Shown piece by piece: positions 1 to 55,100 of a stretch of 64,000 nucleotides of DNA. The translations under genes and the position numbers were made by a program. The notes below the pieces were generated by a model. The model did no database searches and was not told the origin of the DNA. It saw only the letters and a program-made list of their open reading frames with translations. The stretch spans positions 55,163,249 to 55,227,248 of the forward strand of contig NC_088295.1 of assembly GCF_032854445.1 (NCBI RefSeq), given 5' to 3'. This DNA comes from Liolophura sinensis. Taxonomy: Eukaryota; Mollusca; Polyplacophora; Chitonida; Chitonidae. The first letter of the stretch is position 1, and each line of letters opens with the position of its first letter.

Positions 1-235
1 CTTCTGTCTTGCTTGTCCTCAAGTCTCCCATGGAAGTATTCCTGATTTACATGGCATAAACCCGGATCAAGCAGAGAAATTTAGACACTGATGGGATAGA
101 TCTGTCTGTTAAGATTTGCGTAAATCTTTCAGGCTCTAGTTGGATCTCATTGCGGAATGGTTGCGTATTTAGTGTGCAGCAGATGTCTAGGATAAATATA
201 ATGGTGCAAATTTATCTTTTCTTTCTCATATTCAG

Positions 236-29812: not shown

Positions 29813-30012
29813 NNNNNNNNNNNNNNNNNNNNNNNNNNNNNNNNNNNNNNNNNNNNNNNNNNNNNNNNNNNNNNNNNNNNNNNNNNNNNNNNNNNNNNNN
29901 NNNNNNNNNNNNNNNNNNNNNNNNNNNNNNNNNNNNNNNNNNNNNNNNNNNNNNNNNNNNNNNNNNNNNNNNNNNNNNNNNNNNNNNNNNNNNNNNNNNN
30001 NNNNNNNNNNNN
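29813..30012. other. Assembly gap of exactly 200 N
   Basis: Two hundred undetermined bases; a round size usually marks a scaffold join of unknown true length. It lies in intergenic DNA, 1.1 kb before the first peptidase exon. Order and distance across it are assumptions of the assembly. Confidence 0.99.
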
Positions 30013-31104: not shown

Positions 31105-34100
31105 ATGGCGAAAGGGTAAGACAAGATTGATCGTCTTCAACTGTACTTTGTAGATGTTTTGTTTATAATGCATTGGCTTACGTACGTTTAATTAAGTAGG
31201 GGATACATACTCTTGTGAGGTTCACCCCTACGAACTCTTTCTGCCTGTGGAGAAAGGAAAATCGGAGGGTAAAACAAAAGAAACCCCGAGGGTACCGCAA
31301 AGTAATTCGAAAGGGTACCTCACAAACTAAATCCGAGGTACCGCAAGGAAATGACCTCAGGTGATGTAAGGAGACTTCGTCATAAAGTTAGATCCTTAGA
31401 AAGATTGCTTTGTAATATCCGTGTTATATACGGTATTCGGTAGGCTTTAAATGCTGTTCGAGGTCATGGGACCTGAACAGCATTTCAAGCCTACTGAGTA
31501 CCGTATATGATACAGATATTACAAAGCTCAGCCACATTGTACACATGCAGCTATGTATAGCTACGCCGTATAGTCCTAGGTTTCGAAAATGTAAAAGATT
31601 CTGATAATGTGATGCATAGTAAGTATTTTTATCGGTACATTGCGGTAAGATTATATATGATGCAGAAGACTGCAAAATAAGGGAAATTCAGAATTGTCAA
31701 TGGGTTGTGTTCAACACCACAAGTCTGACTAAATCTGAGACTCCAGTGAAGCGTGGGAGTAATTCGATCGTTATGTGCGATAAGTTTACCACGGTGTCAT
31801 CAATGCTCTCTTTAACTACAGGCTTGAGTTATATTTCTCTGCATGATGTTTTCTAAATTTATCATGCAATCTGTCACTTGTACGTGGGTCGTTAGTCCCA
31901 GAGGCTTAACGTCTGTGTTGTATTTCGTCCTTGTTGTAATGGACTGGGAAGTCATCACACTATCGTCTCTAATACCATTTAACTCATATCACCTACACCT
32001 TATTCAGTGAACGATAACCGATATATGCTATAGAATATAAGAAACTGTTTTTTTGTTCACATCCGTGATGTGGTTAGGGTGTGTCTCAGGTAACCTGTTG
32101 GTGTCTCGTTGGGGTGAATGTGAGGGGTGATGGGGTAGTTTCTACAGGTTGATTTTGAATGGATAGATCTTACCATTCAGTGCTTTGGGTCCTACTGTTG
32201 TGGGTATTGTGCTGTTGTCAGATTTTATGTGCAGATTGACAAATGTCAGATGCACTAACGGTGATTCATAAGAGATAAATCTTGATATCTCGAGGCACAG
32301 TTCCATGAACAAACGAACTGTTAAGAGATAGGATTACCAGTATACCGATGACTTGTTGTCTCGCGGCGTGGATTCGTATAATTTAGAGTCATCTTTTACA
32401 TGTCCTGTGGTGTATTCACACGCTGTTCATCGTAACTATAGGGCGGAAATTACTTATATCTCTTACTGTTATCTTTATTGTAACCGGGAATATTTTTCAG
32501 GACATTTGAGTCATACTAACTAGTGATTATTTATATTCATTAATTGGCAGGCTAGGTTTCGTAATGTAAAATGAAAATAATGTCACTTCACAGCTAACTT
32601 TATTAAAATGAATATACCATACTGAAGTTTTATGTCGTGCTTAAAGGAAAAGGGTGCAAATAAAACGATACCTTAGTCCTATACCCCCAATAAGGCAATT
32701 AATTTGCACTTCTGAAAAAAAAATAAGACCTTCAGCGAGTTCAGGTATTGACAAAGATCTGTTATCATGTAACTGTTAGCAGATGTGCAGGACATATGTA
32801 CACGAAGCCCTCCTACAACGTTACGTACCCATAACTACCATGGCAGCCAACGTTGTAGGCATAACGTCGCCATGACACGCTGGTAACGTTGAGAGGGCTT
32901 CGTTTTATTAAAGATACCATATCATTCTCCGAAGAGAAAGTGACATATCCACTGCGTCAACTCACGTTAGTACGTGTGATAACGTGTGGACTTTTACCCT
33001 TTATTTATCTCTGAAATAAAACTTACAAAGGGCCCTCAGTTACAGCAGAGATTATTTTAGATTGGTTGATTGCTTTTCAAACGGCGCAGATATCTACCAT
33101 CCGAGAAACCAGCCGCCGTACATGAGAAGCTGCTGCCAAAAGATGTATTGGAAACAATCATGCGGTATGCTGTGTGTCTTGAACTTTACGATTTAGATTT
33201 CTCTTTAGCAGTCTTAAAACATAATTTCCGTGTTTGTCACAGATCGTTGATGCCGCCTCAGGATGTCCCGACGTGAAAAAAACATGATCTCAGCACACTG
33301 GTCACGAATGGGGTAAATGACAACTAGCATACTGCTGTGTGGTTTTCGAGTTTTAACTGATTTTTTCTGTGTTAGACAGTTTTCGAAAGCGTTTGATTTC
33401 TGTTTTGGATATCAAAGGCCACAACTGTTTTCTATATGGTTGTATAATGCCCCCTCAACCCCCCGATATGTCTAAAATACTGCCAATGTGACGTTAAGCG
33501 CTAATTGTTCATTCATTTATTCAGATCGTTGACGTTTGAGAGAGGAGAGGGCAGCAGGGACTATCTGGATACGTCCTACAAGTCAGGACAAAACTTCAGG
33601 TTCTATCTTCTCGTCGCCATGTTGGCTTGCTTTGTATGTCTTGCAGTAGGCTTTGTCATCGGTTGGTTTGCACATCCAGCCAAAAGCCAAAACCACACCA
33701 GGTTCGTCTGTTTTACACCAGTATGAATCCTTGAGAATTTTAAGTGACATAAAATCTTGACCACTTACAGCACAGTTGTTTTGCTTTACTAATAATCGAG
33801 TCAGTTGTAAAATATAAATTTTTTTAAAAGTTCGACAAGAATTTGGAACACTTTTAACTTTTTATTACTGACTAATTTGTGTAAAATTATACCATTTTGT
33901 TTTTATTCACTTTTTGACATCTTCAGCGACATTCCTACAACCACAGGCAAAATCCTCTCCGGTTTATCTCGAGATAAAATTAAAGAATATCACAAGTAAG
34001 TATTAATTTATTTTATTTATTTGATTGGTGTTTTACGCCGTACTCAAGAATATTTCACTTATGCGATGGCGGCCAGTATTATGGTGGAAGGTAACTAGGC

Positions 34101-37100
34101 AGATTCCGAGCGAAACCCACAACCATACACAGGCTGCTGGCAGACCATCACACAAGTAAGTATTCGCAATCGAACAATAAATAAACTAAAATAGAAACAC
34201 AACGAGATAAACTCTGTAGGCGTCTTCTGTTACGATGGAGTTTTGACTTCGACTTTCTGCTGGTGGACTCAGCGTTCTCAAAGCTTTTACATGAACAGTT
34301 ACAAAAATAATACCTTAACTGATGACGTATTTCACCGGTTACGTGTGACTGTTTGCCAGCTATCACACTGTTGTCGCTGCTCTGGTTTTACTTTGTATAT
34401 TGTAAGTCTTTATTGTATTCTATAGCGCTATGTCACTTTTTTTCACTTCGACTGATACAGGTATCGCCTATGATAGAAATCCACAGTATAACCACACAGG
34501 GCAAAAATCGTAGCTCCCCCATGAAGCTGTCACAGTGACGATCCACGGACAGTATTCACTTTAGACAATCTGTTCACTGTGGACAATGTTCTCGCTGTGG
34601 ACAATACCACTTGGAACAGTGTTTACTGCAGACAATCTGTTCTTTGTGCACAATGTTCACATTGTGGACAGTGTTCACTTGGGACAGTGTTTGTTGCAGA
34701 CAATCTGTTCGCTGTGAACCATGTTCACACTACAGACAATGTTCACTTGGGACAGTGTTCACTGCAGACAATCTGTTCAGTGTAGACAGTGTTGGGACAG
34801 TGTTTACTGCAGACAATCTGTTCACTGTGCACAATGCTCCGTTGGCCACGTCAATTTCCTCTTGGGTATGTGTTATACCAATTTAATGGCTATTGTATAT
34901 TGTTTACAGGTTTCTGACGAATAAACCTCGGTTAACAGCCACAGATGGAGAGTTCGAGGCCGTGGACTATATTGTCGCTCAAATGAGTTCACATGGACTT
35001 GACTCAGTGAAGGTGAAGTCCTACGACGTACTGATGTCATACCCCAACAGCTCCAACCCAAATAAGGTCAGATTTTTAGACTTAATGTCCGTAGAATTTG
35101 TGTCCGCTTCCAGGGGGGTTATTGCAAAAGGGAGATGGATTCTTAATTTATGACAAATGACTGCTAAAAAAAAGTTAATCTCTAATTTTTAACAGACACT
35201 CAATTGTTTGAGTGATGCTAGAATATATTCTGTTATTGTAACACAATATTCTGTTATATTCAACATAATATTCTGTTGGTGTAATAGAATATTGATGTTG
35301 AACTAATAGAGTATGTGTGTACGTCTATTATATTGTTGTATTTAACAGAATAATCTGCCGCAATAGCAGAATACATTCCAGGATCACTCAGACAATAGAC
35401 TTTCAGTGAGATATAACGAATTATTTTTTTGAGTGTAGCGCAATAAATTTGGGCCGTGGGATGATATAGGTCACTGTATACTTGACGACGGTGATAAATT
35501 CTCAAGCTAAACCTCCCATGGAAATAAAAGTCTACCATCAACTAGCTTGGTTTATTTATTTCAGGGATTTTTAAGGGCGTTCTCAAGAATTTATTCATCT
35601 ACTTAATGGCGATAGTGTGTATTTATAGAGTAAGAGATCATACATAACTTAACTATCATAACTATCATGTGAACTGTCTAACTGCAGACCACTTAATATG
35701 TTATCACGGACATATCACGGTCAGAAATTGTATTTATTGGTCGCTAAAGAGAGGCCAAAACCTTGGCATGTGGTACAGCTCCTTAAAGGGAATAGTATTT
35801 ATTTATTTATTTATTTGATTGGTGTTTTACGCCGTACTCAAGAATATTTCACTTAGACGACGGCGGCCAGCGTTATGGTGGGAGGAAACCGGGCAGAGCC
35901 CGGGGGAAACCCACGACCATCTGCAGGTTGCTGCAAGACCTTCCCACGTACGGCCGGAGAGGAAGCCAGCATGAGCTGGACTTAAACTCACAACGACGGC
36001 ATTGGTGAGAGACTCCTGGGTAATTATGCCGCGCGGACTTCCCCTCGGCCATTGAAGCCCCCCAAGGGAATAGTAATGCGACTCTGTGGTTAAGAAACGT
36101 GAATCTGTAAAGTCCGACATTCGTATACGTCTCGTAAACAATGAAGGAGCGTTCCATGTGGATAATAAAAACACCTACTCCAGAACAACTTAAAGCACCC
36201 TGCTTCAGCTAGTTGTTCGAATGTATATTAGCTAATAGTGGTATTAAGTCATTTTTTTTACATTTAGCCAACTTCTGCAGCCAGTGCAGTTTTCAGAAGT
36301 CAAAGTGTAACAGCAGAATATTTAGTTCATATATATTATACTATACCACAATTATTTTGGGGCTAAGTATTAAATTGAAGACTGGCTTTAAGTTAAATCT
36401 GGTATGAATTCTGAATACAACCGGGCCCTGTTCCCAAAGCAGTGTCTAAGATAAGTTATATAAAGTGTAAATAAAGCTGGTAACATGTAAGACGGAAGCA
36501 TTGATCAGTTGTTGTTTTTTTGAACAGGGAAGACATGTTCTGTAGATATTACATCACTTTATTTATTTATTTATCTATTTGAATGGCGTTTTACGCCGTA
36601 CTCAAATAAAATATTTCACTTATACGACGGCGGTCAGCACTATACGGTGGGGAGGGGGGGGGGAGCCTCCGTGGCTCAGTTGGTTAGAGCGCTAGCGCAG
36701 CGTAATGACCCAGGAGTCTCTCACCATTGCGGTCGCTGTGAGTTCAAGTCCAGCTTATGCTGGCTTCCTCTCCGGCTGTATGTGAGAAGGTCTGTCATCA
36801 GCCTGCGAATGGTCGTAGGTTTCTTCCGGGCTGTGCCCGGTTTCCGCCCACCATAACACTGGCCGCCGTCGTATAAGTGAAATATTCTTGAGTACAGCGT
36901 AAAACACCAATCAAAACAAAAAAAAAAAACAAAAAAACTATACGGTGGGGAGGAAACCGGGCAGAGCCCGGGGGAAACCCACGACCATTCGCAGGTTGAT
37001 GACAGACCTTCTCACATACGGCCGGAGAGGAAGCCAGCATGAGCTGGACTTGAACTCACAGCGACCGCATTGGTGAGAGAACCAATCCACGACAATCAGT

Positions 37101-40100
37101 AGGTTTACACCTCTTTAAATTTGTCGTAGTTGTCCGTGAATAATGTCCACGTGGAGTACAAATATAGGTATCTCTGTCAGGCTTTGATTGCAACTGTTCA
37201 TGTAATAACAGTCGACCGAGTCGATGTAATAAACATGGATGCTTCCGCTTTAACCCTGGGCTAATCCAGGGTTAATTAGATACCACTGTAATAACTATGA
37301 AAAAGTTAGCCAGATTCCTTGAACCCTCTGTACATAATTGTCAACAGTATCCTCGAAACAGTAGTTTATTATTCATTACCTTCTGACGTTGATTGAAATC
37401 ATCACATTGGATCTTTGAAACATGTTTTGGTTTGCTCCCCTTGCATTCTTTGAATGGTATTGTATGTCAGATGTGATTGCAAAACGGCATTTTGTCTCTG
37501 GATATCTACAGGTTCAAGTGCTCAGTGGAGGAACCGTGCTATTCCAGTCACAGCCCTATGAGAAAGGTTTATCAGGGGAAGATAACTCTAAAATTGTTCC
37601 GCCGTATAATTCGTTCGCACCTGCTGGGCAGGCTCAGGTAAGTCTTGGTGTGATTTGCTGAACATTTCCCGCCGTTACAAGTCGGTTCCAGGCTGTGTAA
37701 AAACACATCCTGCTCCGCTGTTACGTTGCTGTTGCAGTACTTGTGTGTAACCTCTTTGTTTACGTGCTGAATTATTCAGAAACAGTAACGTATAACAAAC
37801 GAGCACATAGCTTGGTATAAAACCACACAAGGCACCTGGCCTTGGGGACAATGACCGTCCAACGACGCTCGTGTGTCCGTTTGTGCAATCTAGCCTTCCT
37901 TGAAGATCACCTGTCTTCCACAAATATGATGTGCTTCTCTGGGGAAAGTTCGTCAGCAACCTGCCATAAGTAGGTGGTTTACTCCGGTAACTCTTGCCGT
38001 TAACCGTTGTTTGAACATATAAATGAAAGAATGTTTCTTCTGCTTATATTGTAGGGGAAGATTATTTACGTCAATTATGGTCGTATTGAGGATTTTCTGT
38101 TTTTTGCGTGACAACTTGTCAGTGGATTTTACGAATACGCTTGTCATCGCCCGGTATGGAAGAGTATTCCGTGGAGACAAGGTAAGGGTAAGATAAGGAT
38201 GGTAACACTATGATATGGTGATTCAGTGGAGACAAGGTAAGGGTAAGACAAGGATGGTAATACTGTGACATGGTGATTCCGTGGAGACAAGGTAAGGGTA
38301 AGATAAGGATGGTTACACTATGAGAGTAAGATAAGGATGGTAACACTATGATATGGTGATTCAGTGGAGACAAGGTAAGGGTAAGATAAGGATGGTTACA
38401 CTATGATATGGTGATTCCGTGGAGACAAGGTAAGGGTAAGACAAGGATGGTAACACTATGATATGGTGATTCCGTGGAGACAAGGTAAGGGTAAGATAAG
38501 GATGGTTACACTATGATATGGTGATTCCGTGGAGACAAGGTAAGGGTAAGACAAGGATGGTAACACTATGATATGGTGATTCCGTGGAGACAAGGTAAGA
38601 GTAAGATAATGACGGTAACGCTATTACATGGTGATTCCGCTCAGACAAGATATCAGGTGACGTGTTTCCGAAGAAGAAATTACAAAACGTTTAGGTATGC
38701 AATACGTGTCCGCTTCCAAAGAATCATTTTTAATTGTTTTTTGTGAATCTATGCGTCGAAACAGACATTTGTGCACAAGCTGTCAACCAGTGGTCGTTCA
38801 GGATCAATGATCGTAAGGCCAATTCCCAGAACGACGTTTAACAGAAACCACCAGGGAACCAAAGAAGCTGTATAAAGTTTACGAAATTAGGACGGAAGAC
38901 ATAAGCCATATCTTCTTTTGGTTATCAACCCGGTTAAGTTTCGGTGACATTGACCAAGTGTTTCTATGCCTGCGGGATCATATTCTGTGGCGATAGTCAT
39001 ATTTTGTTGCAAGCTTATGAAAAAGATTACCTTGTACCTCATGTACACCTAATCATGTACAAGATTCTGATGGTTTTTCAGTGCCCTTTTCCTTTGTCAG
39101 ATCTTAATTACCTCGTGAACACTCTTCCTTGTAACTGTGCGACTGTGGTATGGTGAATTGCATGGTTTGCTTTGTGTTTTAACTGGTTAATGCCATTACC
39201 TAGATTTGAAGTCTAATTTTGCTGTCAGATCCTAAAGTTACATTTGGATGTGTTTTCAGTTGAAGAATGCGTGGAAGTTCAATGCTTCTGGGTTGATTTT
39301 GTTTACCGACCCAGCTGACTTTAATGCAGATAACTCCTCCAAGACATACCCTGACTCCTGGTGGATGCCTCCCTCAGGGCTACAGAGAGGCACTGTGGGT
39401 GGGGATGGAGATTACCTCACACCCTTCTACCCCGCCACAGGTAACGTTTACAGATCTCCATTTCCTGGAGCTGGTGTTGAATATTTAGTATTGAGTAGTT
39501 TTAAATTTATCTCACTTCTGACACCAAAAACTGTAAAATGTGTGTGTGAACATTTATGCGACAAACGTGTGGTGTAAATGATATAATAAATAGTTATGTG
39601 TCTCATAATTATTATTTTGAATTGAGAAAGCGTGCAAATAATGGTGATATAACTGCAATGCAGGGAAGCTTTTGCACTGTCCTCAAAAGACAACGCTGTT
39701 TTCATATCAGGCCTTCATATATTCTAGGAAAAATCTATAAGAAGCCGATGATTACCGGCTAAATATTTAAGATTTCTAAATTTGGAGGGCTAACCTCAGA
39801 ACTTTCCAACACGTGTAATTTGAGTCCGTGTACGTTGCTTTTGCTTTCGCTTTCGCTTTTGCATGTGGTATGCAGATATTTGTTATCAGTGTTTTAATGA
39901 GTGAAAATAACGATTCGGACGTGTAATTGTCTCTTTTTTAACTTAACTGCACGCTAGATACCAGCCTTAAAGTGAATGTTTAAGGCTGAAAAATTTCAGG
40001 TTGAAATCATCTGAAAAATATTTTCATTTCAGACTACGCTTATCGCCTTGACGTCAGTGAGGTTGACCTCCCGAAGATTCCGTGTCAACCAATCGGCTAC

Positions 40101-43100
40101 GGTGACGCCTACCACATTTTGAGGTATATATTTGTTATATAATGAATGTGTATGGGCGTCGTAGTTGTATCAGGTATATACAATGACACTGAAACACGGA
40201 ATACTCTCCTAAATCAGTGGACTCGTACACTGAATTGTCGAAAATAATCAAATAAAGATCTTATAATTTACACACCATTGTCACACAAGTGAAAACTTCT
40301 TGAACAGAGCATTAAACAAAAATTAAATGAATATATAAATTCAGACAATCTTGTACAAGCTGTTTTGGTTCAATCCTGGTCAAAATAAAGAATTGTCGTG
40401 ATTCTTCTGGGCCTTGGTATACTCGTCAGCAATCGATAACGCTCGAACGGTGGTTTAGATAGTTTATTATGAAAATGTGTGGAACGATATGCCTTCTTCC
40501 AACCAATAAGGTATTAGCTCTGATCTCGATCTGGGAATTGAAATATTTATTTTATTTATCTATTTGATTGGTGTTTTACGCTGTACTCATGAATATTTCA
40601 CTTATACGACGGCGGCCAACATTATGGTGGGAGGAAACCGGGTGGAGCCTGGTGGAAACCCACGACCATCCGCAGGCTGCTGGCAGACCTTCCCACTTAC
40701 GGCCGGAGAGGAAGCCAGCATGAGCTGGGCTTGAACTCGCAGCGACCGCATTGGTGAGAGGGATTGAAATATGTGCGTCGCGTGTGAGAAAGGTCGTCAA
40801 TAATTAAGTTCTGGGGTTTGTTCTTGACACTCCATTTTCCTCCAGTCATGAAACTGACCGTCGTACAGTATAACCTACAGCTTGGACCATATTTCAAATA
40901 AATAAACAAATAATGCTTTCTGTCCTCTATTCATAGCTAGAAACGACCGTAAACTCTAAGTTAATGGCCATCCTTGGAAATATAACATATTTAAACAGCT
41001 TTAATGGGCATAGCCTTAAGTTTCAAGTTAAAAAATGGCGTATGTCGTAAGCTATTTATGGTGCATCGAAATGTAAGTAGCTAGCCGTAAGTTACTTATT
41101 ATGCCTGTAAATCTAAGATACTATAACCGTAAGTTACTGATTGTGTATGGAAATCTAAGGTATATGGCCAAGCACAAGATGCCACAATATTTCCTTCGCT
41201 GTGCGTGAATTAGCTAAGTTGTTTTTGTTGAAATCGTTTCCATGCAGTCGTATGGGTGGTCGCAAAGCACCGACAGCTTGGCAAGGCGGTCTCAACTTCA
41301 CCTATCACATTGGACCAGATATGGACGACCCATTAACGTGAGTTTGAGTTTAATATACTAGTATCTGGTATATTCTATATACACTGTTTCTTCTCTTTTA
41401 CTGTTGCTTCTCTTTTAACGGTGTCCTGGAGAGGTCTAAAAGGTAAACTGATGTATGATTGCACGATATACGTGCTAAACATTGTACAAAGGGTTATTAT
41501 GTACAGAGTTCTCGAAATAAAAGCGTGAGTGAGCATTCTGTGGAGACGATTAACCCACTACCGATGTTATCGTGTAATTGCCGCCGACAATATTAGCTCG
41601 CCTGTCTGCATACTGAAATAAGGAAAAATTACCTTTGGCAATGTGAAGCGTAGTTGTAACCCCAGGAGTAATGAGTGTAAAGACACGTATATGCATCAGT
41701 CACAGTTTTCTGCAGTGACGTTTCACTCTACGCCTACTACCTACATTCACAAAAAGTGTGACGTATACCACAGGGAAAGTTGGACCGCTTTGTTAAAGGC
41801 GGAAAGGCCCAGTTTCCTTCAACCATAATGCTGGCCGTCGTTGTAGAAGTGAAGTATTCTTGAGCACGGCGTAAAATACCAATAAAATAAATAAATAATA
41901 AATAAATAAAGGCGGAAAGAACTTCTACATTTTGTCATCATATGCAACGCCATATACTCAAACTGCAAGGTTTTAACACACAATTTTGAATATCTGTGTT
42001 ACTGAATAAAGAAAAAATTTGCTCCTGTTGTGGTAGGAAGGTACAGGTATGAAAAGAATTTCGTAACTGGGGGAGCCTTGTCGTGCCTAAGACTTTTAAT
42101 TGGCAGTTGGCAGTTGGCAGTTTTGGTTCTTCCCTCCCTCGTTCGTCGCTCAGCGTGAGGGTTCTTGTGGCTTTGTCTGGTTCACAAAAACCTACTCCCC
42201 TGCGTGAAAATCTCTAGTTACTGGTTTAAAAAGGCAAAAACCAAATAAACAAATTTAACGAAGCGTTACCTACACGTGGTGTATAGGTGTCGTATGTGTT
42301 ATTGTCCGCAGAACTAGATAAGTTATTGAATCTGTTCAAGTCATCAAAATATATATTGCAAAAAATCTAAAAGTAAATATGTAAATAGACCAGACGCATT
42401 GTAAACAAAAAACAAACAAACAATGTATAATGCATGAATAAAAGCGCTGATTTGACGGGCCACGATATCCGAAAGGAAAGTGACCCTAAAACCAGTATTT
42501 CAATAAAGTGTCCGGAGAATTATAGTGCTTCCTGACATGGAATGGCTGTATGGCGGTGTCCACGTTTAGGGAGTAGAATTATAACAGTTATTCTCGTGTT
42601 ATAAGTCATGTTTCCATCGAGAAACCTTGTAGAGAATAACATTGCTTACTGTCATTTTATGACAATAATGCGATGTCTATGCAGACAAGAAAGCATGTTT
42701 GCCTTATGTCTAGATATGGTTATATCCAGTGAAGTTTTTGGTCTCTTGCAGAGAGGTGCGATTGGAGGTAAATAACTACGTGAAGATCCGCCCCGTGAAG
42801 AATATTATAGCGACAATTAAGGGCAGTCTGGAACCAGGTGAGCCAAGGTGACAGTTTGTGATTAGAGCAACAGTAAAAGTGCAGTCTGAAAACATGTGAG
42901 CCAGGGCGACGGTCTGTGATTATAGCGACAGTATAAAGGGCAGTGTGGAAATATGTGAGCCAGGGTGAGGGAGGGTCTGTGATTATAGCGACAGTATGAA
43001 GGGCAGTGTGGAAACGTGTGAGCCAGGGCGACGGTCTGTGATTATAGCGACAGTATAAAGGGCAGTGTGGAAACATGTGAGCCAGGGTGAGGGTCTGTGA

Positions 43101-46100
43101 TTATAGCGACAGTATAAAGGGCAGTGTGGAAATATGTGAGCCAGGGTGAGGGTCTGTGATTATAACGACAGTATGAAGGGCAGTGTGGAAACGTGTGAGC
43201 CAAGGCGACGGTCTGTGATTATAGCGACAGTATAAAGGGCAGTGTGGAAACATGTGAGCCAAGGCGACGGTCTGTGATTATAGCGACAGCTTAAAGGGCA
43301 GTGTGGAAACATGTGAGCCAGGGCGACGGTCTGTGATTATAGCGACAATTAAGGGTAGTCTGGAACCAGGTGAGCCAAGGTGACGGTTTGTGATTAGAGC
43401 AACAGTAAAAGTGCAGTCTGAAAACATGTGAGCCAGGGCGACGGTCTGTGATTATAGCGACAGTGTAAAGGGTAGTGTGGAAATATGTGAGCCAGGGTGA
43501 GGTCTGTGATTATAGCGACAGTATGAAGGGCAGTGTGGAAACGTGTGAACCAGGGTGAGGGTCTGTGATTATACCGACAGTATAAAGGGCAGTGTGGAAA
43601 CATGTGAGCCAGGGTGACGGTCTGTGATTATATCGACAGTATAAAGGGCAGTGTGGAAATATGTGAGCCAGGGTGAGGGTTCTGTGATTATAGCGACAGT
43701 ATGAAGAGCAGTGTGGAAACATGTGAGCCAGGGTGAGGGTCTGTGATTATAGCGACAGTATAAAGAACAGTGTGGAACCAAGTAAGTGAGGATGATGATA
43801 AAGGTCAGCCTGGAACTAGGTGAGTCAGGATAATTTCATGTAGATAGATGTCGGACATGCGTAAACGAAGAACTCTTTGATTATACCGTTAGAAGTAGAA
43901 CAACAAAATGGGATGTTGTGCGATCGCTGAGGATGGTTTGATATACTGGTGGAGTAAATAACATTCAAATTTCGATTTGGTGCCTGACTCTGAGGCCTCT
44001 GGTTCGAAACCCGCAGTGGTCTCAGCCAAATTTCAGCACTAGAATCTGTGCTGTATTCAGAAAGTGTAATCTCTATTAACGATAATACTGTTACTTAATT
44101 CACTTTCCAAATGACATAGGGGCCTCCGTGGCTCAGTCGGTTAGCGCGCTAGCGCAGCGTAATGACCCAGGAGCCTCTCACCAATGCGGTCGCTGTGAGT
44201 TCAAGTCCAGCTCATGCTGGCTTCCTCTCCGGCCGTAAGTGGGAAGGTCTGTCAGCAACCTGCGGATGGTCGTGGGTTTCCCCCGGGCTGTGCCCGGTTT
44301 CCACCCACCATAATGCTGGTCGCCGTCGTATAAGTGAAATATTCTTGAGTACGGCGTAAAACACCAATCAAATAAATAAATAAATAAATCCAAATGGCAT
44401 CTATGCCTATCTGTAAACACCAATAAATAAAGTAATTTATGACACATGCAAGATAAATTGTAAATTCCAAACATGGTGCCTCTTTTTCGCTGACTAGATC
44501 TCCGGTCGTACGATGGTCCTGTGTTTCCTCGGCCCGATTTCCTCTGACCATAATACTGGCCACCGGAATAAAACAACAATTAAATAGATAAATAAATCGA
44601 TGTGTTTTCCCCACGGCTGTGAACTGTGATCTTTCCTTGTTGTATCGTAGGATTTAAAGCTACTTGCTATGACGGGTTAATAATTGCGTGAAAAATTCTT
44701 GAGTACGGCGTTAAACACTAATTAAATAAATAAATAAATTCTGTAAATCTTGGGAAAATGATATTTTGTGGTAACTACCTACTGGAAGACATTTACGGTT
44801 TGTGTAATTTGTTTATAAATGACGATGCACGGTATTCGGTTATCAGTTAAGCAACTCGCCATGGTAATCATGACTGCTTTGCCTGTTGATTTCAGACAGG
44901 TATGTTATACTGGGTAATCATCACGACACCTGGGTCTACGGTGCCATAGATCCTCTCTCTGGCTCGGCGGCGGCGCTGGAAATCAGCCGAGTCTTTGGCA
45001 ACATGCTGAAAACCGGTAAGACCGTATGCAATGAAGCCACATTTGCCCATGTATACTCGGTGTTTTACCTTTCCTTCCCCATGCATGTATAACCCCAGTG
45101 CCTATTCAGCTTCGTGCCAGACCAAGATATCAACTTGTGCTGGTTTGGTGGCCATGTTGGCGATATTTTCCACAAATGGATATTTTCGATAAATTTGGCC
45201 TGTAGAGGTATTGCCATATCGCTTGATATTTGTCCATTTCTTTGCAAACGCTCTATCTTTTGAATGCTTCTAGTCATTTTTAACAGACGTTTATGCCTGA
45301 GCATTGGGAAGAACACTGTTCCTTTTCTGTGACCTTAGTCACTTTTTTCAAGGTCAATAGCTTTATTTAAATGAAGTATATCTGTGAAGCACATAGATAT
45401 TTTCCATATTTGGGGGATAAGGGTATCATACCGGTTGGAATCAATTCGTCCGTCTGTCCATTTTCTTTTGATCTTTTGAACGCTTGTAGCCAAACATTTC
45501 AATTAAGGACTGGGAAGAACACTGATCATTTTCGTTGACTTTGGTTAGATTTTTCAAGGTCATTAGGGTCATTTAAATTATAGATCTTGAGAGTTTTATT
45601 AACACCTTATCTCTTGAACTCTTTCAGCAATTCTCATCAATCTGGTACCACACGTGCACTGTCATGTAGAAGAACCGTGTTGTTTATTATTAACCTTCGC
45701 CTATTTTCAGGGTCATTGATCCTGTATCTCCATTACCTAGTTAGTAAGCACTTTATCTCCATTGCAACTGTTGAAGAGTATTTAGTGCATGCTTGGTATA
45801 TTTTGATTTTGTGAGAAACCCAGATTATCTGACAAGCATTTATAGTCGTGAGATGTCGGAAATAATTTGATCGAAGCGTTGAAACCCTAAGTAAACAAAC
45901 ACTGGCGTGAGACATACTCTGTAATTATTCTAGTGGTTGCCATGTATTTCAGGATGGAGACCGCGTCGCACTATCGTCATTTGCTCATGGAGTGGGGAGG
46001 AAGAAGGTCTTCTGGGCTCCACGGAATGGGTGGAGGTGGGTTTCCATAAGACAATTGGCATAATTCCGATTAAATGTTTCAGTTGTTAGATATTCAGTGA

Positions 46101-49100
46101 AAGGTTCTCGCCATATGAATATTTCGAAAGAATTCGTCTTACATTGTTACTTAACAATCCTAAAAGTACAAAATGTACGTCTGAATATGAAAAGAAAAGC
46201 CATATGTATTTTTAAATATGCATGTACTCAGTGAATACAAATTTCTTTTACACTCAAAAAATAATGTGCTAAGTTTAGCAGAAAGTCTGTTGTCTGAGTG
46301 GTGGTAGAATGTATTCCGTTATTGCAGCAAATCGTTCTGTTAAATATAACACACATATTCTATTAATTCAACTTAAAGATTCTATTAGACTAACAAGATA
46401 TTGTGTTGAATATAACAGAACATTGTGTCATGATAACAGAATACATTCTAGCATCGCTCAGATGACATACTTTCTGTTAAAATCAGCAGATTCATTTTGT
46501 AGAGTATACTCCATCAAACAGAACAGCTAACGTATGGAGAAGTTTCCCACAAGCAAATGTCAAAAGATTTTCCCAAATTTCTTCTGGAAGAGTGTATAAT
46601 TTCATGAGTGTTAAAAATGGTTTTGCTAAATGTGATTTGTATATCTGTGTGACTTATAGGATCATATGAAGGTACTGTATGAACGAGCCGTGGCTTACCT
46701 GAACGTCGACTACACAGTAGACTTCACCTACGCTCTCGCCATCGGTACAAGCCCTCTCTTACAAGACTCAATTTTTGAGGCCACAAAAAAGGTACCCATA
46801 AGCTATTTATTGGCAAGTACAAAATGCATAATCATTCACTTTATGTAGTTCTGTACAAAGCGTTTTCTCCGCCAGTGAAGGGTATACATAACTGTGTTTT
46901 AACAGTGTGTAATGTACTTTTTTTAGGAGTCCATGTTATAGATTGTAAAACAATTCGTTGTCTTGTTGAAGGGACAGAACAGGGTAGTCAAGTATCATAC
47001 TTTATTGTTTTAATCAGATTTCACCGAATAACACGTGGAAAAAAATGACAATACTGCTCAAATGGCTGGTGCGAATCGAGGCAGCCATCTTTATTTTATC
47101 CAATCAAACACATGGCTATCAGGCTGCACGGCCTAAGCTGTGTCGTAGCCTTTACCCATTCACTCCATGAAGTGACACATGATAGCCCAGAACTACTGCC
47201 TAAAACATCATTTTGAGATCATTTACAACGATTCATTTACGTGTAGCCGAATGGTCATTTCACGCGGTGTTGTGAGACAGGTGTGTATAATTTACGAACC
47301 ACCACTGACGTAAAATCAGTTGATTTACAGGCCTTGCAATATTAAACGACGGTATCACAAATTATGTCAGACAGCAGCATACCGTCTCGGCCCAAACCGC
47401 ATACCTTCGACGTATGATCTGTAGAGAGCTGTCGACAATCGAGACGCGCTGAAGCTATGACAAGACGAAGTATCACTAAACTTTTATTGGGTTGAAAAAT
47501 TTTTTTAAAAATATTTAATGCCGGTTTAAGATACCTTGTATGCTAGTCTTTCAGTGGACATAAAAATTAGTCAAGTGCTGTCTTTCACTTTAATGGAGAA
47601 GAAAATTTACAAAAGGCACTATGGGCTGAAAAGAGCAAAATTTTTTCTAACTGATGGTGCCTGCTGCATAATTTTGCGATTTTTCCTCGCCACACACCTA
47701 AAGCCTGCAAACGGCAAGTTGGCATAAATCGCAGAATCCATGGCATCATCCATCTTTCAACACCCTGTAATTTATGCAGGGGGTGTGTTGCCTATCAGCC
47801 AATGAAAGTCGTTAAAACTGCCGGCTTGTTCGTGTAAACTCGGAACCTATGTCCAAGATTCCGGTTTCCCGATCGTCAAGCGGCAAGAAGAGTTCTACCG
47901 GAAATGTATGAACTACACTTCGTCGTTTTCCGACGGAAAATCTCCCCCTAATACAATCAGCCCACAGCGGATTTTGGCGCTCAATTTATTTATAATTTAT
48001 CAACTTGAGGTACATGGCATGAGGTTTTATGACATGCACATGCGAGGAAATGCATACTCTTTTCAATGGTATTTTTTATATGTAAGTTTTCTTCTCCTTT
48101 AAAGAAAATAAGGAAAAGTTCATAATCTTGTATTTGTATATATGTTTTGGTATGTTTATTTTTGTATCAGGTTTTTTAAAAGAAGATTTCACTAATTCGT
48201 TGTTTTGTTAAAGAAACTAATTAAAAGTTTGTAAATGTTGTGTCTGTATGTATGTTTTGGTATGTTTATTTCATCGGGGTTTTTAAAAGAAGACTTCACT
48301 AATACATTCCTGAAGTGCCTGAGAGATCTCCTGTGTGGGAGGTGGCAGAAGTCGAACGCACGACCTCACTGGTTAACAGCAAGAGCGGCGCAATAACATC
48401 GGCAATGATCTGGGGCCAACATAATGCCTGTATCAAGACACTTAACTTTATTTCTCCAGATACCTAACCCAACACCATCGAACAGCGAAAAGACTTTATA
48501 TGACATCTGGAAAAAACATTTACCGGCTGATAAATCCAACCCTGACACAGAGCCAGAGTAAGTGATTGAGTATTTAATAATCAATTGTGATTTTTTGGGT
48601 CTGTATGTCTGTTATTTCGCCCGTCAGTCGGTATCAAAGTGTGGGCTACAACAGTTATGCTTTGTATTTGCAGTTTTGAATTAGACAGAAGAATAGATGC
48701 ACAGGTGACAATGTACCGCACTTTACATTTGTCCATTTCAACAGTTGCTATGACAACCCAGATTGCCTATTTCCCTATATGTCTACGATGTAGATAGATA
48801 TGATTTCGTGAGTAAATAGATACAGAGATTGCAAATATTTACCGTATATAATATACGAGTAGGAATGTATTTGTTTGGTGTATTGGGTTCAAATGAATTC
48901 TTGTTGACCAAGCATGTGTACCAGTATGGGTCTTAAATCAGTCGCACTCCGAGTAGGGATCGAGCTGTTATAAGACTCCTGTCTCGTAATCTGAATATGG
49001 TCGTACATAAGTGGCACTCTTTGTACTTACATGCATCGGCGCTGGTCATTTAAAGGAGTACTGACTGTGGTTTGAATGAATTATCGGCAAAATATGGATG

Positions 49101-52100
49101 ATCTTTGGATTTTGACAGTAATCCTTTATTAGGGGATAACCCAAGTACTGCATACATGATGACCCGGTGCTTGGTACCATCTATTTCTGGCATCCCGGTG
49201 TCTTCGGCACAGTATAAGGCAGAACTATAAGTGTGTGGTACTAGATACCGGTTGTATGACAGTATGGACAAAACACATTTATCTTTAGTTTCCTTATTAT
49301 GAAGGCCAGTGTGAACCACCGTATATTCTATTGGATGGGGCGGCACACCGGAGTACTTATATACATAACCATGAGCATTTTGTTGTATGCTCATTGACTT
49401 GGAACGCCCCTTTATGGTTTACGAAGGCTATGCTAATGTAGGACTTGACGCTTAGACTATTTTAATTTCATTGATGTTTGGAGTAATTCTGGACTAACTA
49501 ACATCAGGGCATTTTTTTATACCTAATGTCGTTTAAGCCATGGTGCTTTGGGGCGGGCGTGCATATGTTAATACTTTTTAAGTATATACATGAAAAAGAT
49601 GTAATAAAACCTTAGCTTAGGCATGAAGGTAAACTGACAAGAGATCGGAGTTATACATGTAACCATATATGCCAATTATCACACTGTCATCACAGCTCTG
49701 TTTTTTTTCTGGAAAGTAGGTGTAACATCTTTTCATTTGTACCTATTTCTGCTTAAGCCATGCCGCTATGGGTCGTGTATGTTCCCACATTTTAATCATG
49801 TACAGGAGCAGTTGTAATGCGCGCGTGCATGAATGATGCCACTTTTTATGCATATACATGAACAGTTGTAATGCGTGCGTGTATGAATGATGCCACTTTT
49901 ATGCATATACATGAACAGTTGTAATGCGTGCGTGTATGAATGATGCCACTTTTATGCATATACATGAACAGTTGTAATAAAACCCTAACAGGTAGATTGA
50001 CAAGAGGCCGGATTTCAACTGTATTACGGTTGACCATATTTACCAACCATCAGTGTTATTACTGCTCTGATTTTATACGCTCTAAAATAGTTCTATTCGA
50101 CGATGGTCAGGTTTATGAATAAAGAACACTGCCCTTAGTGGCGAAAAGTTTTAAGCACGAAAAGACATTCTTCAAAATCTACACTTAAAAATTTACTGAT
50201 GGTTCTGAGCAGAAGAGGGCAGCCTGATTAAATAAACAAGAGACGATAGGACTAAGTAAGGTCATTTATTTAAAATCTTTTTAATAGATGCTGTCATGCA
50301 CGCGAGCAAAGTGCTCTTAAAGAATAAATAAAACTAAGTAAATATAAGCTGGTGCCTTGGTGATGAAGTGTTTGTTTGTTTCAGAGTCTACTATTCACTA
50401 GGGTCAGGCAGTGACATGGCCACCTTTTATCAAAGAGCAGGTGTTCCATCCACGGATATGTATTACACTTACGATCAGGTATGCACTATTTGAACGTGAT
50501 GTCACGAAGCAGCTGTAACGGTACAGGTCATATTCTACTGAGCGACGGTCGGCCTGAATTGAAATTTTAACACATGGCACAATTTTCGTACTGAATTCAT
50601 GCTGTTAGCCACGGTAACGCCGTTATAGATGGTTGCTCTGTAGATGTGCAAGGGCTCTGATGAATAATAGTTGCTGCTGAAAGTCTACTAGCCCTTGAGT
50701 GTGCAGCCACAGGTTCGAATCCAACACTCGCCGTTTTGGTTATGATTTTTTCAGGAGATGTTGCAAGATGTTTGAAGCGGTACAGTATTTACGCGAGCTA
50801 CACAAACATATGTGAACTAACTTGTACAACTGCCATTTTTCGAAGACCGTCTGATTAGTGGATTTGTGTTTCAGAACAGATGGCCAATCCTGTCCTACCC
50901 ACTATACCACTCAGCCTACGAGACGTACCACATGTACTCGGCCTATATTGACCCATCCTACAACTACACATTAGCTATGGCCCAGCTATGGGCAATACTA
51001 GCCTGGTAAGTTATCCACCTGGTATACCACTCAGCTTCCGAGACATACTACATGTACTCGGCCTATATGGACCCATCCTACAACTATACACGTTAGCTAT
51101 GGCCCAGTTATGGGGCGATATTCGCCTGGTAAGTTATCCACCTACTATACCACTCAGCCTACGAGATATACCACATGTACTCGGCCTATATGGACCCATC
51201 CTACAACTATACACTTTAGCTATGGCCCAGTTATGGGGCGATATTCGCCTTGTAAGTTATCCACCTACTATACCACTTAGCCTACGAGATGTACCACATG
51301 TACTCGACCTATATTGACCCATCCTACATCTATACACTTTAGCTATGGCCCAGTTATGGGACGATATTCACCTTGTAAGTTATCCACCTGCTATACCACT
51401 CAGCCTACGAGATGTACCACATGTACTCGGCCTATATTGACCCATCCTACATCTATACACGTCAGCTATGGCCCAGTTATGGGGCGATATTCGCCTTGTA
51501 AGTTATCCACCTACTATACCACTCAGCTTCCAAGACATACTACATGTACTCGTCCTATATTGACCCATCCTATAACTACACCCGTTAGCTATGGCTCAGA
51601 TATAGACAATATTAGCCTGGTAAGTTGTCCACCTGCTATACCACTCAGCCTTCGAGACATACCACGTGTACTAGGCCTATATGGACAAATCCTGCAAGTA
51701 TACACGTTAGCTGTGGCCCAGCTATGGGCAATATTAGCCTGGTAAGTTATCCACGTGCTGTGCCTCCCAGCCTACGAAGCTTACCACATGTACTCGGCCT
51801 GTATTGATCCATCTAATAACTACACGTTGGCTATGTTCCCACGATATGGCTGCAGCATTGAAAGTGGCAAAACCACCCAGATTTGCCATATGAACCCGGT
51901 CTACATTAACCCATTTTACAACTACACGTTATGTGTAGCTTAATACTTCGTGGAAGCGAATCTTTCTCCCACTTAAACGGTTGCATTAATGTTACATTAT
52001 AAATGATTTCTGTGTTCAGCGCTGGGAGGAAGTGATGATACAAAGTGTGCATATAGCACAAGGGTGGGGGGGGGGGCTGTGTTTTGTTCTGATTCTTTAT

Positions 52101-55100
52101 GTACGGCGACATGACCAAGATATACTTGGCTGGACATGATGCAGAAGCTTAAAAATATTCCAGGACCGCTAGGCGTGTGGCTCTTGTATCTGTCGCTGAG
52201 TGAGAAATTACGGTCTCTGAATTGAGTGACGTCACTCTAGCGTTCAACATGTGTGACGTGCGGAACATGCATACAATATTCGTGGAATTTAACGAGCGGT
52301 CTCCAATAAACATTACACTGCGCAAACGACCACTTATTGTTACTAAGGTCCCACGAGTAGTAAGACCGGTTTGTAGGCCTATATGATTTGCATTTATGTA
52401 GAAATATACACAACTATTGATGCTCATATGTTTTATTTTCCTTTCAGTGATATCGCAGAAGCAAATATTTTGCCGTTCAACGCAAAACGCTATTCTACAG
52501 CCATTGAAAAATTTGTCACCGAGAAAGAAGAGTTATTTGGACAAAGCTGGAAGTTAAATAACGTTAACTTGAGTAAGTGCTTGTCTTCATTCTTCGGTCA
52601 GGATAGGCATGACTATATTGATTTTTAATTACGCTCTGCTCCCCACCGACGTGGTTATTCCTTTTACACATGTCATATATACAATACGATGTGGGAAGGT
52701 CTTCCAGCAACCTGCGGATGGTCGTGGGTTTCTCCCGGGCTCTGCCCGGTTTCCTCCCACCATAATGTTGGCCGCCATCGTATAAGTGAAATATTCTTGA
52801 GTACGGCGTAAAACACCAATCAAATAAATAAATAAATATATACAATACGAAACCAAAAACGGAATATTATCCCCATGCATATAACATATTATGTTTTACA
52901 GAGTAAGGAAAGGTTTAGTGACACCTTTATTGACACAGCTATTACGCTTTGTACAAGTGTTGCTTGGGAACGAATGATAATCCGGGTTAATGCATTGCTA
53001 AATAAACCCTTACGAGATGTACACATAGAATGGATGGCTATTTTGATGAGAAGGGCAGTTTTTCGTGATTTCAGAGGGAATGCGTTTCTCTCTTTGTAAA
53101 CCCACTGATTCTGTGCCAAGTTATATCAGTCTTTTACTTATTTCTTTCCAGAGTCATTAAAATCAGCGGCGAAAAACTTCTCCCAAGCTACAGCAAAGTT
53201 TCACGAAATGATCAAAGATCTTGATTCACCAAGGTATTATTGTGATTTGAGATGCAGAAGGAGCGTTTGTCAAATGTAGTAGGGTATAGTCATGTTGTTG
53301 TTAGAAACATTTATGTGACTATACATGGAGTTCGAGTGTTACTGTCAGCCATTACGTGGACAAGCGAGACGATTTACCTATGTATGCTGTTTAACATGTT
53401 TTTTGCTCTTTGGGCTGTTTTAGGCGTTTCGTGTATTTATGCTGTTTACCTTATTTATGGCTTTCACACTATTTATGCCGTTTGAGCTGTTTTTGGCGCT
53501 TCGCCTGTTTATGCCGTTTGGGCTGTTTTTGGCGTTTCACCTGTTTATGCCGTTTACACTATTTATGCCGTTTGGGCTGTTTTGGGCGCTTCACCTGTTT
53601 ATGCTATTTACAATATTTATACCGTTTACACTCTTTATGCCGTTTGGGCTGTTTTTAGCGTTTCACCTATTTAGGCTGTTTACACTATTTATGCCGTTTG
53701 GGCTGTTTTTGGCCTTGCACCTTTTTATGCCCTTTACACTACATATACCGTCTACACTGTATATGCCGTTTGGGCTGTTTTTTGCGTCTCACCTATTTAT
53801 GCCGTTTACACTATTTATGCCGTTTACACTGTTTATGCCGTTGGGGCTGTTTTGGCGTTTCGCCTGTTTATTCTGTTTGGGGTGTTTGTTGGCCTTTCGC
53901 CTATTTATGCCGTTTACACTGTTTATGCCGTTTGGGCTGTTTTGGCGTTTCGCCTGTTTATTCCGTTTGGGCTGTTTTTTGGTCTTTCGCCTATTTATGC
54001 CGTTTACACTATTTATGCCATTTGGGCTGTTTTTGCATTTCGCCTGTTTATAACGTTTGGTCTGTTTTTGGCGTTGCACCTATTTATGCCGTTGCAGCTA
54101 TTTATCTCGTTTCAACTATGTATACCGTTGTAACCATTTCTGTCTACAAACAATGCTTTAATGACCCTACCTTACATTTCCTCGCCTTATATGACACTAG
54201 TTAATGTGTTGAAAGCATTGAAATACGGGTATTGTACAAAAATTAGTAAACTCACAATTTTTACAGTTGTCAGATGTAAACGTTTGGTTTCAACTCTACG
54301 AACAGCTGAATCGAACAGCTGAAGCTTTTAATGCAAAATGTCAAATTACAGTTATTGATAAGTTATTTATTTATTTATTTATTTGATTGGTTTTTTACGC
54401 CGTACTCAAGAATATTTCACTTATACGACGGCGGCCAGCATTATGGTGGGTGGAAACCGGCAGAGCCCGGGGGAAACGCACGACCATCTGCAGGTAGCTG
54501 CAAGACCTTCCCACGTACGGCCGGAGAGGAAGCCAGCATGAGCTTGACTTGAACTCACAGCGACCGCATTGGTGAGAGACTTCTGGGTCATTACGCTGCG
54601 CTAGCGCCCTAACCAACTGAGCCACGGAGGCCCCTAAGTATTAATAAGTAGATCATGACATTTTGATGTATACACAAATATTGATCACAATAGCAAATGG
54701 CATGATTGTTGTTACGAAACTACTGATAAGCTGATCTCGTAGATACAAATGTGCTCAGTAAGCGTAACAGTCTAGGAGTTAGAAAGCACCGCAAATGCCA
54801 TTGAAGTTTATAAGAAGCCTAAAGTTATTTACGCCCACAAAAATCTTGTCTGGGAAGTATGGAACGGATAAGACTATATCAGGTTTCTGTTTCGGGATAT
54901 AAATAATATCGCTGTGAGTCTGTAGAACACACTTGAAAGGTTAATGTTTAGGACTCAGCGTGTAATGCAGTGACTGAGTGAAGGAACCTTTGCAAGATTA
55001 GTTAGCTGCATTTACTCATTTCGTGACTTGTCAAGCGATGTTGTCGGAAATGTGTGCTGCGAACATTTTTCGCAAAACACTATTGAGGTTTTGACAATAT

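What the first reader, a model, noticed from the sequence alone, without database searches (positions are those of the whole stretch)
38165..51945. Three exons of one gene have had their 3' end plus splice donor amplified into intron minisatellites
In the peptidase gene, exons 6, 10 and 16 each form the first unit of a minisatellite continuing into the following intron (38165-38640, 42805-43790, 50893-51945). Periods differ (55, 59, 123 bp) and sequences are unrelated, so these are three independent events, yet each spans an exon-intron border and multiplies the 5' splice site. Other minisatellites here (11032, 18605, 34545, 53410, 60990) do not include exon sequence. I know of no named process for this. 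One speculation is that R-loops or replication stalling at splice-donor-rich borders start the slippage; another is that the decoy donors affect U1 recruitment.
Basis: partly seen in the sequence, partly recalled or inferred. Interest (0 to 1): 0.85.

Follow-up and report, generated by a model that had tools for sequence, protein, structure and literature searches.

The report
Exon-end minisatellites ("mirages") in a chiton
In a chiton gene for a glutamate-carboxypeptidase-like enzyme, three exon ends with their splice signal have been copied many times into the next intron; this is a named but little-studied kind of repeat known from amphioxus, and here it also turns up in several other genes, in the sample always on the same side of the exon.

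Summary
In a GCPII/NAALADase-like gene on the + strand, three unrelated minisatellites (units 55, 59, 123 bp; about 9, 16 and 8 units) start 16, 34 and 109 nt inside an exon and carry its 5' splice site into the intron. That no name exists is wrong: amphioxus papers call such arrays "mirages". Assembly statistics match the chiton Liolophura japonica, so this is a mollusc case. A symmetric BLAST test on 109 exons (window gene, paralogs, and 36 helicase and ABC exons fetched without regard to repeats) left exon-end copies downstream in 10 and exon-start copies upstream in 0. Further cases include DDX41-like and SMARCAD1-like exons and a two-copy duplication in an ABC exon. Against a donor-driven birth process: donor words are hardly over-represented in arrays genome-wide, one array has the opposite GC skew, and 4 of 5 units tested lack unusual hairpins. 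The best explanation is ordinary tandem duplication filtered by selection. The 5'-most donor stays authentic and is transcribed first, so exon-end duplications are tolerated. Of 46 downstream donor-like sites, 45 would add a stop codon. Splicing itself was not measured; no RNA data were available.

The parts
33526..55843 (+). GCPII/NAALADase II-like peptidase gene, 19 exons mapped (first exon(s) not mapped)
   Evidence: exon map; colinear PDB alignment of exons 6-19 to GCPII/GCPIII, best E 5.3e-141
38166..38639 (+). array 1, 55 bp unit = 16 nt exon end + 39 nt intron with GTAAGG donor; 9 full or partial units; 17 GTRAG sites from the true donor on
42804..43777 (+). array 2, 59 bp unit = 34 nt exon end + 25 nt intron with GTGAGC donor, 16.5 copies; unit at 43336 is a near copy of unit 1 (97.96 percent over 49 nt)
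50897..51835 (+). array 3, 123 bp unit = 109 nt exon + 14 nt intron with GTAAGT donor, 7.7 copies; degenerate copies by eye to about 51935
53409..54139 (+). ordinary intronic minisatellite 176 bp after a donor, without exon sequence (comparison)

Best explanation
These are mirage-type arrays. Shown: a stretch of about 20-125 bp at an exon's 3' edge (mean of the 8 units measured: 46 nt exon, 16 nt intron) is repeated head to tail into the following intron, and the 5'-most copy is the conserved exon end. Inferred: the first duplication arises by ordinary slippage or microhomology error, and slippage or unequal exchange then adds units. It is tolerated because the acceptor-to-first-donor exon stays intact and the extra copies become intron. 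The authentic donor is transcribed first and lies nearest its acceptor, so it wins; downstream donors would nearly all add a stop codon, so nonsense decay or selection keeps them silent. Duplications at exon starts put decoy acceptors ahead of the true one and are removed more often, which gives the one-sided pattern. No function is required.
For: Unit anatomy and exon homology up to the donor. All GTRAG sites in the three arrays translated in the homology frame: array 1, 15 of 16 downstream sites give a stop (the one at +6 stays open); array 2, 24 of 24; array 3, 6 of 6. Symmetric test: 10 of 109 exon ends v 0 of 109 exon starts (sign test 0.002, or 0.008 with the three paralogous exon-8 arrays counted once). 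A wider query on the 36 family loci gave the same downstream loci, and one upstream hit (L029) that is an interspersed repeat in the intron, not exon sequence. A two-copy stage exists (L043) beside arrays of about 3 to 26 copies. Introns 5 and 15 are present in four paralogs, and intron 9 in one where it was mapped, without such copies, so these introns are older than the arrays. Amphioxus mirages were reported not to disturb splicing (PMC3087553 passages).
Against: No RNA data: use of the first donor is inferred from protein homology. Amphioxus has exon-start mirages too, so exon starts are not forbidden. In the unselected loci alone the one-sidedness is 4 v 0, P 0.125. Exclusion of the first unit from homogenisation is clear only in array 2 (identity 0.818 to the others v 0.881 among them); array 1 shows the reverse (0.938 v 0.891) and array 3 no difference (0.854 v 0.857). 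For family loci the test regions sit at match or open-frame edges, so boundaries far from the match are missed on either side.
Confidence: 0.7

Rival explanations
1. 5' splice sites are real mutational hot spots: something coupled to transcription or splicing at exon ends (R-loop, stalled polymerase, bound U1) starts the duplications.
For: Exon-end overlap in the 36 unselected exons is above a uniform expectation (3 TRF arrays v 0.95 expected, P 0.07); three paralogs have an exon-8 array with, by eye, nearly the same breakpoints although one of them differs from the other two at 0.71-0.74 of 4-fold sites, which could be recurrence.
Against: Donor words are barely enriched in arrays genome-wide; third array has opposite GC skew; no unusual hairpins in 4 of 5 units tested (the L022 unit has z -2.47).
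Confidence: 0.17
2. Pure chance: the genome is rich in minisatellites and some must overlap exon ends.
For: 7.4 percent of the 350,585 bases examined lie in TRF arrays of any period; three of seven in one gene has P 0.009-0.026 before allowing for post-hoc choice.
Against: Copies at 10 of 109 exon ends and none at exon starts (corrected).
Confidence: 0.1
3. The decoy donors are functional: they recruit U1 or allow regulated alternative 5' splice sites or nonsense-coupled control.
For: Most copies in arrays 1 and 3 keep a GTAAG donor.
Against: 45 of 46 downstream GTRAG sites give stops; in array 2, 14 of 16 unit donors have lost the exonic AG before GT; arrays sit in unrelated genes.
Confidence: 0.02
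4. Assembly artefact.
For: Tandem arrays can be misassembled; coverage of the published assembly is 14X.
Against: Inner units differ from each other by about 11-14 percent on average, the three arrays are under 1 kb, and the reported mean HiFi read is 8.3 kb; the same pattern recurs in unrelated loci.
Confidence: 0.01

Closest known systems
Amphioxus 'mirages' (Adh3; globins BflGb6 and BflGb9; PGBD5; troponin C)
   Different: amphioxus shows both exon-start and exon-end arrays; here only exon-end ones were found; a mollusc rather than a cephalochordate; length differences, somatic instability and RT-PCR were reported there, not tested here
Intron gain by tandem genomic duplication (AG/GT proto-splice model; potato RdRp case PMC4974935; human repeats in segmental duplications PMC2812944)
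   Same: tandem duplication that creates extra splice signals (PMC2812944 passages; PMC4974935 start of abstract in the listing)
   Different: here introns 5 and 15 already exist in paralogs without arrays; no new intron is made
Ordinary intronic minisatellites
   Same: period, divergence and length are in the same range as neighbouring arrays
   Different: the first unit is constrained coding sequence

Membership tests
mirage | tandem repeat whose unit spans an exon-intron boundary | tested here: met
   for three window arrays; elsewhere
mirage | splice signal multiplied in the copies | tested here: met
   17, 25 and 7 GTRAG sites across the three arrays (not all lie at unit donors)
mirage | regular splicing not disturbed | not testable with these tools
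   no RNA data; only indirect support from colinear homology
mirage | copy-number polymorphism or somatic instability | not testable with these tools
   one assembly, no reads
mirage | inner units homogenised, boundary unit excluded | tested here: inconclusive
   met in array 2, not in arrays 1 and 3
mirage | both exon starts and exon ends affected (as in amphioxus globins) | tested here: not met
   0 of 109 exon starts; small sample, and not a strict requirement of the term
intron gain by tandem duplication | intron absent in relatives without the duplication | tested here: not met
   introns 5 and 15 are present in four paralogs without the arrays; intron 9 could be checked in one paralog only

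The most novel reading that the evidence does not exclude
In chitons, 5' splice sites are preferred birthplaces of minisatellites: roughly a tenth of internal exons (4 of 36 unselected, 95 percent interval 3-26 percent) have had their 3' end and donor copied into the next intron, rarely or never their start, and some such arrays (exon 8 of three GCPII paralogs) may have been kept and co-evolved with their exon since before synonymous sites saturated.
Probability: 0.25. Interest if true: 0.75.

Novelty: new member of a known kind. Interest (0 to 1): 0.45.

Why it matters
Under the name mirage, the papers found here describe such arrays in amphioxus only. Finding them in a mollusc, in five unrelated gene families of a small sample and on one side of the exon only, makes them a countable trait. 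That gives a natural test of how cells choose the first of many near-identical 5' splice sites, and of whether minisatellite birth or survival depends on gene structure. They may also mislead gene predictors into calling the copies exons.

Tried and rejected
R-loop or G-rich origin: GC skew is +0.19, +0.32 and -0.12 in the 2-kb windows of the three arrays, so not a common cause. Hairpin-driven slippage: DNA folding z-scores -0.35, 0.16 and -1.15 for the three window units, -2.47 for L022, 0.83 for L021; six other window units -0.19 to 1.07; no consistent signal.

Donor words as array seeds genome-wide: nearly null (against background: AGGTAAGT 14 v TGAATGGA 19; GGTRAGT 87 v 91; acceptor-like TTTTNCAG 145 v 86 outside arrays, and 1852 v 926 in triplets). 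These counts are matches, several per array; only the 14 v 12 comparison is of distinct arrays, grouped by eye.

Rows dropped: 66 family loci were fetched (25 of 76 listed Helicase_C matches, 19 of 19 ABC_tran, 22 of 138 Pkinase), and the BLAST test used 36. I dropped 8 helicase/ABC loci with long open frames or many stops, after their arrays had been seen; one of these, L018, has a two-copy repeat at a CDS end. I also dropped all 22 kinase loci because the top matches are mostly long open frames; TRF showed arrays (score 80 or more, period 15 or more) in 6 of the 22, none touching the matched frame. One of 11 donor-side BLAST hits (L045) was removed as an artefact: its exon ends at 1659 and the array starts 12 nt inside the intron. 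A wider query on the 36 loci gave downstream hits in L021, L022, L028, L043 and L045 and one upstream hit, in L029, which is an interspersed repeat copy in the intron. A degenerate exon-6 array in the first paralog was seen by eye, fell below the BLAST threshold and is not counted. Terminal exons are in the 109 although they lack one boundary; paralog and locus exon ends are approximate (tblastn or Pfam match ends). The stop count used a wrong frame for array 1 (the exon-5 frameshift) and printed part of the sites; redid it for all sites.

Papers: searches (19 and 55 show 15 of 19 and 15 of 23 papers; one found none) list no title or abstract opening that reports such arrays in a mollusc. Two mollusc gene-structure papers from the listings were searched inside for tandem repeats and minisatellites, and the passages shown do not describe them (PMC7931591; PMC3862624). 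The library is open-access only, and the original 2002 Adh paper is not held.

Full report
What is there. The gene is a glutamate carboxypeptidase II (NAALADase II)-like peptidase on the + strand. Nineteen exons were mapped between 33526 and 55843, and the product of exons 6-19 aligns over residues 2-528 of 530 with GCPIII (E 5.3e-141) and GCPII structures. Tandem Repeats Finder places three arrays at 38166-38639, 42804-43777 and 50897-51835. Each unit therefore holds an exon end, the GT donor and 39, 25 or 14 nt of intron. The units show no match to one another.

Whose genome. The assembly holding the window has 609,464,459 bases in 632 contigs. The chiton Liolophura japonica assembly has 609,495,693 bases in 632 scaffolds (PMC11068029, passages). 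Of ten large contigs whose length I saw, seven (C1, C3, C7, C8, C9, C11, C12) equal its scaffolds 1, 11, 3, 4, 5, 7 and 8 to the base; C6, C10 and C13 are 3-6 kb shorter than scaffolds 2, 6 and 9. The organism is inferred from this and from nothing else.

What it does to the gene. I took all GTRAG sites across each array and translated from the exon end to each in the homology frame. In array 1 the first donor and one 6 nt on leave the frame open and 15 others give a stop; in array 2 only the first is open, of 25; in array 3 only the first, of 7. The first donors join exon 9 to 10 and exon 15 to 16 with no insert relative to the PDB relatives. So a working protein needs the 5'-most donor (or the +6 one in exon 5); that cells use it is inferred.

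How the arrays evolve. In array 2 the first unit is the outlier (mean identity to others 0.818, others among themselves 0.881), yet the unit at 43336 is almost identical to it (97.96 percent over 49 nt), so the exon end has been copied into the array again. Arrays 1 and 3 do not show such an outlier. Four paralogs were examined (three in a cluster on C6, one 13 Mb away). They have introns 5 and 15, and one has a mapped intron 9, but no exon-5, 15 or 9 copies there, so the window arrays appear to have arisen in existing introns after the paralogs split. The three clustered paralogs instead have exon 8 amplified with units of about 66 bp and, by eye, nearly the same breakpoints. Two of them differ at 0.40 of 4-fold sites, but the third differs from these at 0.71 and 0.74, so this array is either old and co-evolving with its exon, or recurrent.

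Is it common. Helicase and ABC exons were fetched without regard to repeats. By TRF, three of 25 helicase loci have the exon end amplified: a DDX41-like exon ending ENY (39 bp x 22), a DEAD-box exon ending HRIG (22 bp x 26; DDX52 by recall) and an exon ending VGQTR (69 bp x 11) whose best PDB match is a SWI/SNF-related helicase, SMARCAD1 by recall of the truncated name. PDB matches confirm homology up to the donor. A symmetric BLAST test then asked, for 109 exons, whether the exon end recurs downstream or the exon start upstream: 11 v 0, of which one (L045) is an artefact, leaving 10 v 0. A wider query on the 36 loci changed nothing once one upstream hit proved to be an intronic interspersed repeat. 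One of the ten (L043, an ABC exon ending FFDEPTR) is a bare two-copy duplication, the likely starting stage. By sample: 3 of 19 window exons, 3 of 44 cluster exons, 0 of 10 in the fourth paralog, 4 of 36 unselected exons. The sign test gives 0.002 for 10:0, 0.008 for 8:0 with exon 8 counted once, and 0.125 for the unselected 4:0.

What argues against a special birth process. Placing the seven in-gene arrays at random gives P 0.009-0.026 for three exon-end overlaps. Genome-wide, triple occurrences of AGGTAAGT at 38-68 bp spacing number 808 v 643 for the reversed word; GGTRAGT 6970 v 6025; acceptor-like TTTTNCAG 1852 v 926, where single occurrences outside arrays in my sample are already 145 v 86. 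Distinct arrays on the first 40.5 Mb of C1, grouped by eye from the listings, are 14 v 12. GC skew and folding give no common cause. Exon-end arrays are thus one class within a repeat-rich genome (7.4 percent of the 350,585 bases examined lie in TRF arrays of any period).

Prior knowledge. Tandem repeats spanning exon-intron boundaries were named mirages in amphioxus Adh (2002 paper not held; cited in PMC3087553). They were found in amphioxus globins at an exon start (BflGb6) and an exon end (BflGb9), with units of 150-160 bp, different copy numbers in two BflGb6 haplotypes and RT-PCR suggesting regular splicing (PMC3087553 passages), and in PGBD5 and troponin C (PMC3902484 passages). Human repeats at exon-intron boundaries have been linked to new introns (PMC2812944 passages). 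Paper searches list no mollusc case, within capped listings of an open-access library. I therefore call this a new member of a known kind; the donor-only pattern and its frequency are the new part and need the full genome.

Judgement. The likeliest account is neutral tandem duplication plus a one-sided selective filter set by splicing order; a donor hot spot remains possible. The decisive count needs the gene annotation, which I did not have.

Noticed in passing
38090-38125: Exon 5 has an apparent +1 frameshift in a run of six T: homology continues in another frame on either side. Assembly error, polymorphism or a damaged allele; the other mapped exons are open in the homology frame.
   Followed up: partly
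L043 1700-1780 (oriented with the match): Bare two-copy duplication of an ABC exon end plus donor (FFDEPTR), the likely starting stage of such an array.
   Followed up: yes
L014 2424-3189 and L018 1964-2047 (oriented with the match): Repeats that start in the last codons of a helicase reading frame, include its stop codon and run into the 3' flank (41 bp x 19 and 42 bp x 2): the same logic at a CDS end without a splice site. Gene names DDX23-like and TTF2-like are recalled.
   Followed up: partly
G000 C6:17706001-17756000 (L001-L005): Cluster of three GCPII-like paralogs, each with exon 8 end and donor amplified, unit about 66 bp.
   Followed up: yes
L021 1633-2212: The repeat unit is the last 22 nt of the exon, which itself begins GTCAGT, so the present donor looks like a copy of exon sequence; a possible case of a donor made by duplication.
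   Followed up: no
about 44110-44390, 36660-36930, 54370-54640, 35810-36060: Several copies of an interspersed SINE-like element with a tRNA-like head (by eye); another copy pair lies in L029.
   Followed up: no
29813-30012: Run of 200 N, probably a scaffold gap.
   Followed up: no
191-5258: Open frames that resemble cullin-5 exons on the + strand (by recall); the gene's full extent and its relation to the arrays at 7168, 11041 and 18611 were not mapped.
   Followed up: no
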